Assembly (NCBI GenBank): GCA_019310965.1
Contig: JAFDDG010000009.1
Span: 1 to 64,000 of the forward strand
Source of the DNA: Deltaproteobacteria bacterium
GTDB lineage: Bacteria > Myxococcota_A > UBA9160 > SMWR01
Length of the DNA stretch: 64,000 bases
Direction of reading: 5' to 3'
Shown: positions 61,109-63,459 of the stretch, one piece after another
Layout of the letters: each line of letters opens with the position of its first letter
Position numbering within the stretch: the stretch's first letter is position 1
Notes under the pieces: generated by a model
Told to the model about the DNA's origin: nothing
The model's input: only the letters and a program-made list of their open reading frames with translations
Database searches by the model: none
Made by a program: the position numbers and the translations under genes

Positions 61109-61378
61109 GTGAAGAAGATCTACGTTGGCAACCTTTCGTGGGGCGTCACAGACTCGGAACTGAAAGATTTTTTTGCAAACTACGGAACGGTGCACTCCGC
61201 CGTCGTGATCACCGACCGGGAGACCGGTCGCTCGCGGGGCTTTGGCTTCGTCGAGATGGATGCCGCCGACGCGGAGAACGCGATTCGCGAAGCCGATGGC
61301 AAGGACATGGGCGGACGCTCCCTGCGCGTCAACGAAGCGCAGGAGCGCCAGCGCCGCCCGCAGCGGGACCGCTGGTAG
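61109..61378 (+). CDS. RNA recognition motif (RRM) RNA-binding protein
   Basis: 89 residues with GTG start. A single RRM: RNP2 'IYVGNL' at ~4-9 and RNP1 'RGFGFVEM' at ~43-50, with a basic C-terminal tail. These short bacterial RRM proteins are often cold-inducible and bind RNA in the cytoplasm. A ~240-bp gene-free leader precedes it, and a strong terminator follows 10 bp after the stop, so it is a single-gene transcript. Confidence 0.95.
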   Translation: MKKIYVGNLSWGVTDSELKDFFANYGTVHSAVVITDRETGRSRGFGFVEMDAADAENAIREADGKDMGGRSLRVNEAQERQRRPQRDRW

Positions 61379-61530: not shown

Positions 61531-61980
61531 ATGTCTCACCTCGGCCGCACCCGCGGCCTGCCGCTCGTGATCACGCTGCTCGCCTGCGCGGGCAGCCCGC
61601 CGACCGACATCGGCGATTTCGCCGCGCGGCTCGCCCCGTGTCCGAGTTCGCCGAACTGTGTTTCCAGCGATGACGAGAGCGAGCGGCACCACATCGCCGC
61701 GCTCGGCTTCGGCGGCGATCCGCTGGAGGCGTGGCACAGGGCGCTCGCCGCGGTAGCAGCTCTGCCGCGAACACAGATCCTTCGAGAATACTCGGGCTAC
61801 TTGCACGCCCAGTGCACGAGCGCTCTGCTGCGCTACCGCGACGACCTGGAGCTTCAGCTGCGACCCGATCGCGGAGAGATCGCCGTGCGCTCGGCATCGC
61901 GCATCGGGTACAGCGATCTGGGAGTGAACCGCGCCCGGATCGAAGCCTTGCGAGCCGCCTTCGGCGCCGGCGGCTCCTAG
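61531..61980 (+). CDS. DUF1499 lipoprotein-like protein
   Basis: 149 residues. A signal-like segment ends in 'LLACAGS', a probable lipobox. The DUF1499 features are clear: 'LAPCPSSPNCVSS' near residue 33 and 'SRIGYSDLGVNRARIEALR' at the end. The family is found in bacteria, algae and plants, and its role is unknown. No close coupling to neighbours; it is convergent with the histone-fold gene. Confidence 0.9.
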   Translation: MSHLGRTRGLPLVITLLACAGSPPTDIGDFAARLAPCPSSPNCVSSDDESERHHIAALGFGGDPLEAWHRALAAVAALPRTQILREYSGYLHAQCTSALLRYRDDLELQLRPDRGEIAVRSASRIGYSDLGVNRARIEALRAAFGAGGS

Positions 61981-61996: not shown

Positions 61997-62461
61997 TCAG
62001 CTCGTGCCCGGGATGTCCCGGTCGAGCAACGTGCGCCGGCCGTCGCGACGCGCGTTCTCGATGGCCGTGTCGACGGCGTCGCGCACCAGATCCGAGAGCG
62101 GGCCGAGCGCCTTGTCCGACGTGCTGAACTCGCCGTTCCGCCTCACATACTCCTTGAGACGGCTGGCGACGATCAAGATCTCGCTCCCCGGCGCAGCGCT
62201 GTCGTCGCTGCCGAGTGTCGGTGCGCGACGACGGGGCCTCTGCTCCGCAGCCTCGTGCGAAGCCGGGGCCTCGCGCTCGACGGCCCAGGCCTCGCGGTGA
62301 TTCGCACCGGGCAGGTGCACTTCCCAGCAGCGCACGCTGCAGAACGCGAGCCCGGTGCGCTTGCGGTTGCAGGTGGAGACGTTGCACACCCAGTAGCCAC
62401 TGGCGTACGCAATCGGCTCCTTGCACACGCTGCACCGGCGCCACTGCTGCACATCACTCAT
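61997..62461 (-). CDS. Zinc-finger protein with a C-terminal histone fold
   Basis: 154 residues from ATG 62461. Residues 10-55 carry eight Cys/His (C10, C13, C26, C31, C41, C45, H49, H55) in the spacing of a two-zinc ZZ/MYND-type finger. After a charged linker (~62-92), residues 95-151 fit a histone fold: a short helix ('ILIVASRLKEYVRR'), a loop, a long helix ('DKALGPLSDLVRDAVDTAIE' in part), then 'RRTLLDRDIP', the R-T-x3-D-like ending of archaeal-type histones. It probably binds DNA as a dimer. Divergent from the selenoprotein gene, 186 bp away. Confidence 0.85.
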   Translation of the reverse strand: MSDVQQWRRCSVCKEPIAYASGYWVCNVSTCNRKRTGLAFCSVRCWEVHLPGANHREAWAVEREAPASHEAAEQRPRRRAPTLGSDDSAAPGSEILIVASRLKEYVRRNGEFSTSDKALGPLSDLVRDAVDTAIENARRDGRRTLLDRDIPGTS

Positions 62462-62647: not shown

Positions 62648-62866
62648 ATGCACATCGAAATCACCTACTGCGGCGCTTGAAACTTCCTGCCTCAGGCCTC
62701 CAGTCTGGCGGCCGCGATCCAGGACTCCTTCGACGTCAAGGCCAAGCTCATCCGAGGCGACAACGGCATCTTCGATGTCAGCGTCGATGGAAAGCTCATC
62801 TACTCGAAGCACGAGACGGGGCGCTTCCCGGAGACCGTGGAGATCCTCGACGGGCTGCGCAGCTGA
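62648..62866 (+). CDS. SelW-like (Rdx family) selenoprotein, CxxU
   Basis: 72 residues. The redox motif is C8-G-A-U11, with U11 encoded by the UGA at 62678-62680. The rest matches the SelT/SelW/SelH domain: 'IEITYC' before it, 'NFLPQASSLAAAI' after, 'GIFDVSVDGKLIYSK' and 'GRFPETVEILDGLR' at the end, reaching the stop at 62864-62866. A thioredoxin-like fold with a selenenyl thiol role is expected. A conventional caller would reject this gene because of the early stop. ATG 62648 has no strong ribosome site. Confidence 0.9.
62678..62713 (+). promoter_or_regulatory. bSECIS-like hairpin and selenocysteine UGA
   Basis: The UGA is at 62678-62680. GGCC-T-CCA (62695-62702) pairs with TGG-C-GGCC (62706-62713), with a T-C mismatch and a GTC loop at 62703-62705. 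The loop G is 23 bases after the UGA, inside the bacterial SECIS range. Confidence 0.65.
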
Positions 62867-63057
62867 GATATCCGCGTTGTCGGCGCTCAGTCCGCCCCGT
62901 GTAGCGGAGACTGTTCACCTGCCGCGACGACACCGGTGGCACCCGCGAGCAGCTCCACGGACCGCGGCCTGTCGGCCCGAAGTTCATGATACGCTGCGCG
63001 CCTCGCAGCGAGCCCCGCGGCGGCCCGCGCCGTGCGCGTGGCAGAGGTCTTGCCGAC

Positions 63058-63459
63058 ATGGCCGAGCGCAGCTTCTTTGCCGTCTCCACGCTCCTGTGGC
63101 TGGGATACGGCGTGTACTGCTTCTTCCAACCCGGCGTGCTGGCCGAAATGGCCGGTGTCATGGGCTCGACGCCAACCGCCACCACGGAGCTGCGCGCCAT
63201 GTACGGCGGCGCCCAGGCGGGCATCGGCCTGCTCTGTGCCGGCGCCTTTGCCCAGGCGACCTTGCGACGTCCGGCGCTGCTGGCGCTGCTCTTCATCGTG
63301 GGCGGCCTGGGCACTACGCGCCTGCTCGGCGCGCTGCTCGACGGCTCGTTCACCAGCTACACATTCTCGGGCCTCGGCTTCGAGTGGGCAACGATCGCTG
63401 TGGCGGCGTGGCTGCTGTCGCGAACGAGCACGCCGCCCGCGGCCACATTCAGCTCCTGA
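63058..63459 (+). CDS. DUF4345 membrane protein
   Basis: 133 residues from ATG 63058. Four helices and the DUF4345 pattern 'ERSFFAVSTLLWLGYGVYCFF' in part, 'ELRAMYGGAQAGIGLLC' and 'LGTTRLLGALLDGSF' are present. The family is widespread and of unknown function. No operon partner is clear. Confidence 0.85.
   Translation: MAERSFFAVSTLLWLGYGVYCFFQPGVLAEMAGVMGSTPTATTELRAMYGGAQAGIGLLCAGAFAQATLRRPALLALLFIVGGLGTTRLLGALLDGSFTSYTFSGLGFEWATIAVAAWLLSRTSTPPAATFSS

What the first reader, a model, noticed from the sequence alone, without database searches (positions are those of the whole stretch)
61997..62461. Zinc-finger plus histone-fold protein in a bacterium
Eight Cys/His in a two-zinc spacing are followed by a C-terminal helix-loop-long helix-loop ending with R-R-T-L-x2-R-D. 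Histone folds fused to a zinc finger are an unusual bacterial chromatin-protein type, comparable to the prokaryotic 'ZZ' histone variants I recall being described recently.
Basis: partly seen in the sequence, partly recalled or inferred. Interest (0 to 1): 0.82.

Follow-up and report, generated by a model that had tools for sequence, protein, structure and literature searches.

The report
A bacterial zinc-finger ("ZZ") histone
The gene encodes a small bacterial protein with a two-zinc module joined by a floppy linker to a DNA-bending-type histone; it is a clear, well-conserved member of the recently described 'ZZ histone' family, not a new kind of protein.

Summary
On the minus strand (62461..61997) lies a 154-residue protein with Cys10, Cys13, Cys26, Cys31, Cys41, Cys45, His49 and His55, a low-complexity linker, and a histone fold at 93-150. 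The histone part matches the solved Bdellovibrio histone HBb (E 8e-7 alone; 1.5e-13 with a family profile). In 35 distinct sequences all eight zinc ligands are invariant, as are Lys103, Arg142, Thr144, Arg148 and Asp149. My two AlphaFold models were too poor to test whether the zinc module is truly a ZZ fold, and no Pfam ZZ model was hit. Most likely it dimerises through the histone fold and bends DNA as HBb does, with the zinc module on a flexible tether as a second contact; both steps are inferred. Extra observations: the gene has no conserved neighbours; within its class the companion histone is either archaeal-type or HBb-type, never both; and rarer relatives carry the zinc module alone or with two histone folds. 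The last two I did not find described in the papers read.

The parts
61997..62461 (-). ZZ-histone gene, 154 aa, ATG at 62461, stop at 61999-61997
   Evidence: translation; conserved as a protein in 35 distinct sequences
62264..62443 (-). two-zinc module, residues 7-66: C10 C13 C41 C45 (C4 site) and C26 C31 H49 H55 (C2H2 site), with invariant VSTCN, R35, W7, W46 and W59
   Evidence: site pairing taken from PMC11390915
62186..62263 (-). low-complexity linker, residues 67-92; 34-85 aa between the conserved blocks across relatives, usually with a short RR[IL]V-like basic patch
62012..62185 (-). alpha3-type histone fold, residues 93-150
   Evidence: 8cmp/8fvx hits
62012..62038 (-). R142-R-T144-x3-R148-D149 loop: RD clamp and DNA-contact loop, residues 142-150
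   Evidence: aligned to HBb R51, K52, T53, R57, D58

Best explanation
The gene encodes a ZZ histone. The C-terminal 58 residues form a histone fold that pairs with a second copy (homodimer) and grips successive minor grooves of DNA non-specifically, bending it as HBb of Bdellovibrio does. The N-terminal module folds around two zinc ions and is held on a flexible linker, so that it can make a second contact, with DNA or with a chromosome-bound protein partner. Identity as a zinc-histone is shown by sequence. Dimerisation, DNA bending and the role of the zinc module are inferred. The protein probably acts beside a second, smaller histone in the same cell, as a targeting or regulatory architectural protein rather than as the bulk packager.
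For: Histone-fold homology to HBb. Of the ten HBb residues with most DNA contacts (PMC11317129) five are identical (S100, K103, S115, T144, R148), three are Lys-to-Arg (R101, R107, R143) and two differ (A99, S113; position 113 is Asn in 24 of 35 sequences). The RD clamp R142/D149 is invariant in 35 of 35. All eight zinc ligands are invariant and the zinc module is more conserved (70% mean pairwise identity) than the histone fold (63%), while the linker is not (22%) and varies in length, as expected of two working domains on a tether. No conserved gene neighbours, as for most nucleoid proteins. The own genome has a second, archaeal-type histone. The Bdellovibrio ZZ histone is reported as low in abundance.
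Against: No experiment on the mechanism of any ZZ histone was found in the papers searched. Both structure models were poor (mean pLDDT 49 and 48), so neither the fold of the zinc module nor the dimer was tested. Position 143 is variable in the family (K/M/R/Q/E), so one DNA contact of HBb is not kept throughout.
Confidence: 0.75

Rival explanations
1. TAF-like adaptor: the histone fold serves mainly as a dimerisation scaffold (possibly pairing with another histone), and the zinc module binds a protein partner; DNA packaging is not its job.
For: Zinc module is the most conserved part; relatives exist with the zinc module alone (L083-L086); low abundance reported in Bdellovibrio; 53 of 60 genomes with a ZZ histone also carry a second histone.
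Against: Most HBb DNA-contact residues are kept, several without exception; no partner gene is conserved next to it.
Confidence: 0.25
2. Sequence-specific DNA-binding regulator: the zinc module reads DNA and the histone fold only adds non-specific affinity.
For: Invariant, mostly basic loop STCN-R/Q-x-R-T with R35 in all 35.
Against: The related eukaryotic domains named in PMC11390915 bind protein tails, not DNA; no conserved target site or neighbour known here.
Confidence: 0.1
3. The histone-like match is a chance resemblance to a helix-turn-helix or other helical protein, or the ORF is not translated.
For: Full-length model has low confidence over much of the histone region.
Against: E-values to 1.5e-13 against solved histones, invariance in 35 sequences, no HTH family hit.
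Confidence: 0.01

Closest known systems
ZZ histones (Schwab et al. 2024, PMC11390915; Haliangium ochraceum D0LYE7; a Bdellovibrio example)
   Same: N-terminal C4 + C2H2 two-zinc module, seven of eight ligand positions identical to the published profile, C-terminal alpha3 histone of bacterial-dimer type
   Different: Eighth ligand is C45 here (C43 as printed in the paper, possibly a misprint; not checked because the D0LYE7 sequence was not at hand); 53 of 60 ZZ-bearing genomes here have a second histone, against about 50% stated in the paper
HBb / Bd0055, bacterial dimer histone (PDB 8cmp, 8fvx, 9ezz, 9f0e)
   Same: histone fold with RD clamp and most DNA-contact residues
   Different: HBb has no zinc module or linker
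HLp, face-to-face histone of Leptospira (PDB 9qt0)
   Same: alpha3 histone fold, profile E 3.7e-8
   Different: wraps DNA as a tetramer; no zinc module
Archaeal-type small histone of the same genome (C32:63602-63790, PF00808)
   Same: histone fold
   Different: 70 aa, archaeal-type sequence, no zinc module, different family

Membership tests
ZZ histones | N-terminal module with eight ligands forming a C4 and a C2H2 zinc site | tested here: met
   C10 C13 C26 C31 C41 C45 H49 H55, invariant in 35/35; pairing into sites is taken from the paper, not shown here
ZZ histones | zinc module has the ZZ fold | tested here: inconclusive
   models at mean pLDDT 49 and 48; no Pfam ZZ hit at E up to 10 in five members
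ZZ histones | C-terminal alpha3 histone closest to bacterial dimers | tested here: met
   best solved match HBb, then HLp
ZZ histones | R-x-T ... R-D loop motif of DNA-binding histones | tested here: met
   R142, T144, R148, D149 in 35/35
ZZ histones | binds two zinc ions; dimerises; binds DNA | not testable with these tools
   needs purified protein
bacterial dimer histones (HBb) | stand-alone histone fold without a further domain | tested here: not met
   fused zinc module and linker
face-to-face histones | tetramer through the R48/N52-type contacts | not tested
   paper's residue numbering could not be mapped without its profile

The most novel reading that the evidence does not exclude
The zinc module is a portable chromatin part of this bacterial phylum that is found alone, with one histone fold, or with two histone folds in one chain keeping most of the R-T/R-D residues; and a whole bacterial class runs a two-histone chromatin in which the ZZ histone is paired with either an archaeal-type or an HBb-type small histone, the two replacing each other by lineage.
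Probability: 0.4. Interest if true: 0.55.

Novelty: new member of a known kind. Interest (0 to 1): 0.33.

Why it matters
ZZ histones are among the least studied bacterial chromatin proteins; I found no functional experiment on one. The family here is large and very well conserved, so which residues to mutate is clear. The lineage-wise swap of the companion histone gives a natural test of whether ZZ histones work with a partner histone, and the double-histone relatives would be the first bacterial histone doublets I know of that keep DNA-contact residues (the DUF1931 doublets lack them, PMC12701072).

Tried and rejected
Conserved operon or partner gene: none beyond one genus in 29 loci. Phage or viral origin: no relatives in viral contigs and no PHROGs hit. 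Sequence match of the zinc module to a solved zinc domain: only noise, best E 0.13. zf-HIT as an alternative label for the zinc module (its C-x3-C-x3-H spacing resembles HIT/MYND fingers, from memory): only E 1.5, well under cut-off, so left open. Origin of the HBb-type free histones by loss of the zinc module: the tree groups seven of them with HBb rather than inside the ZZ clade, but on about 60 residues with weak support; the eighth, L062, comes from the first bases of its contig and groups with ZZ histones, so it is probably a ZZ histone cut by the contig end. One genome search was wasted on a mistyped family accession.

Full report
What is there. The coordinates hold a minus-strand gene of 154 codons, ATG at 62461 and stop at 61999-61997. 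The protein has three parts: a two-zinc module (residues 7-66), a linker (67-92) rich in Pro, Ala, Arg and Glu, and a histone fold (93-150). The other reading frames over the same stretch hold only ORFs with no sign of being genes; some of them look conserved across loci simply because they overlap the real gene.

Is it more than chance? Yes. Searched alone, residues 93-150 match the solved Bdellovibrio histone HBb (8cmp E 7.9e-7, 8fvx 8.8e-7). A five-member profile gives 4.9e-12 and a 25-member profile 1.5e-13, followed by the Leptospira histone HLp 3.7e-8 and archaeal histones. Pfam gives nothing above threshold, and NCBIfam only a sub-threshold archaeal-histone hit (E 0.0078, 16.6 bits against a cut-off of 50), so automatic annotation would probably call this hypothetical.

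The family. In 97 genomes (own and related) 69 match. I collected 35 non-redundant members, the window's protein included; all eight Cys/His are identical in all of them, as are W7, V28, S29, T30, N32, R35, F40, W46, R56 and W59 in the zinc module, and L96, K103, L122, S123, R142, T144, R148 and D149 in the histone fold. Mean pairwise identity is 70% in the zinc module, 63% in the histone fold and 22% in the linker. Two conserved domains joined by an unconserved, length-variable linker is the pattern of two working parts on a tether.

DNA contacts. The HBb paper (PMC11317129) lists ten residues with most DNA contacts. Aligned to this protein (offset 91): S9-S100, K12-K103, S24-S115, T53-T144 and R57-R148 are identical; K10-R101, K16-R107 and K52-R143 are Lys to Arg; T8-A99 and N22-S113 differ, position 113 being Asn in most relatives. 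The RD clamp R51/D58 is R142/D149. That supports the same mode of DNA contact, but does not prove it.

What it is called. Schwab et al. 2024 (PMC11390915) define 'ZZ histones': an N-terminal domain with a C4 and a C2H2 zinc site, and a C-terminal histone of the bacterial-dimer type. Their profile positions (10, 13, 26, 31, 41, 49, 55) coincide with this protein; their eighth ligand is printed as 43, while here it is 45 in 35 of 35. I suspect a misprint but could not check the Haliangium sequence. The name ZZ rests on their structural comparison; my own models (mean pLDDT 49 and 48) are too poor to test it, and no member hits a Pfam ZZ model. The protein works like, and by every sequence feature I could test belongs to, the ZZ histones.

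Where it occurs. By the titles of related records the genome most likely lies in or near Myxococcota. ZZ histones occur through the class and in many other families of the phylum: 98 of 282 sampled genomes match the profile, though some of these matches are free histones or zinc modules alone. Two scans of viral contigs found none.

Companion histones. The own genome has one further histone, a 70-residue archaeal-type protein at C32:63602-63790 (PF00808, 37 bits against a cut-off of 21.4). Across the 90 genomes of the class, 49 have this archaeal type and 29 have a free HBb-type histone, and no genome has both: family f5 and the single f9 genome have only the HBb type, the other families only the archaeal type (one of the 29, G020, carries two such matches, of which the one at a contig start is likely a cut ZZ histone). 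53 of 60 ZZ-bearing genomes have one of the two companions. In a 282-genome sample of the phylum the archaeal type was seen only in this class. This looks like one lineage-level swap, so it is not 78 independent events. The counts come from drafts, so absences are soft.

Variants. Three genomes in different families encode a zinc module followed by two histone folds in one open frame (L080, 284 aa; L081, 282 aa; L082, 254 aa; lengths are stop to stop), with the R-T and R-D residues largely kept in both folds. Four ORFs carry the zinc module with no histone fold found in any frame of the roughly 1 kb region fetched (L083, L084, L085, L086). I did not find either arrangement in the papers I searched, but I did not read supplements.

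How it most likely works. Shown: the two domains and their conservation. Inferred from HBb: dimer formation and DNA bending at minor grooves. Inferred from conservation and the linker: the zinc module makes a separate contact. Reported by others for one relative: low abundance, which argues against bulk packaging. I put 0.75 on the combined statement, 0.97 on the identity alone.

Verdict. A correct and well-recalled finding; a new member of a known, little-studied kind.

Noticed in passing
window 62648-62866 +: Overlooked selenoprotein next door: MHIEITYCGAUNFLPQASSL..., an Rdx/SelW-like protein with an in-frame TGA in a C-x-x-U site; Pfam Rdx E 3.8e-18 when TGA is read through. The genome has SelB (PF09107). 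SECIS element not examined.
   Followed up: partly
G000 C32:63602-63790 (L030 1483-1695, minus strand): Archaeal-type 70-residue histone in this bacterial genome; in the sampled phylum this type was found only in the window's class.
   Followed up: partly
L080, L081, L082: Relatives with a zinc module plus two histone folds in one chain.
   Followed up: partly
L083, L084, L085, L086: Stand-alone zinc modules of the same family without a histone fold.
   Followed up: partly
G014:C175, G016:C204 (genus g11): ZZ-histone genes that match only over the zinc module and have stop codons in the matched stretch; possibly decaying or truncated copies.
   Followed up: no
window 61109-61375 +: Small stand-alone RRM RNA-binding protein, Pfam RRM_1 E 2e-21.
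   Followed up: no
window 61531-61977 + and 62986-63456 +: DUF1499 protein (E 1.5e-34) and DUF4345 protein (E 2.1e-13) lie on either side of the gene on the other strand.
   Followed up: no
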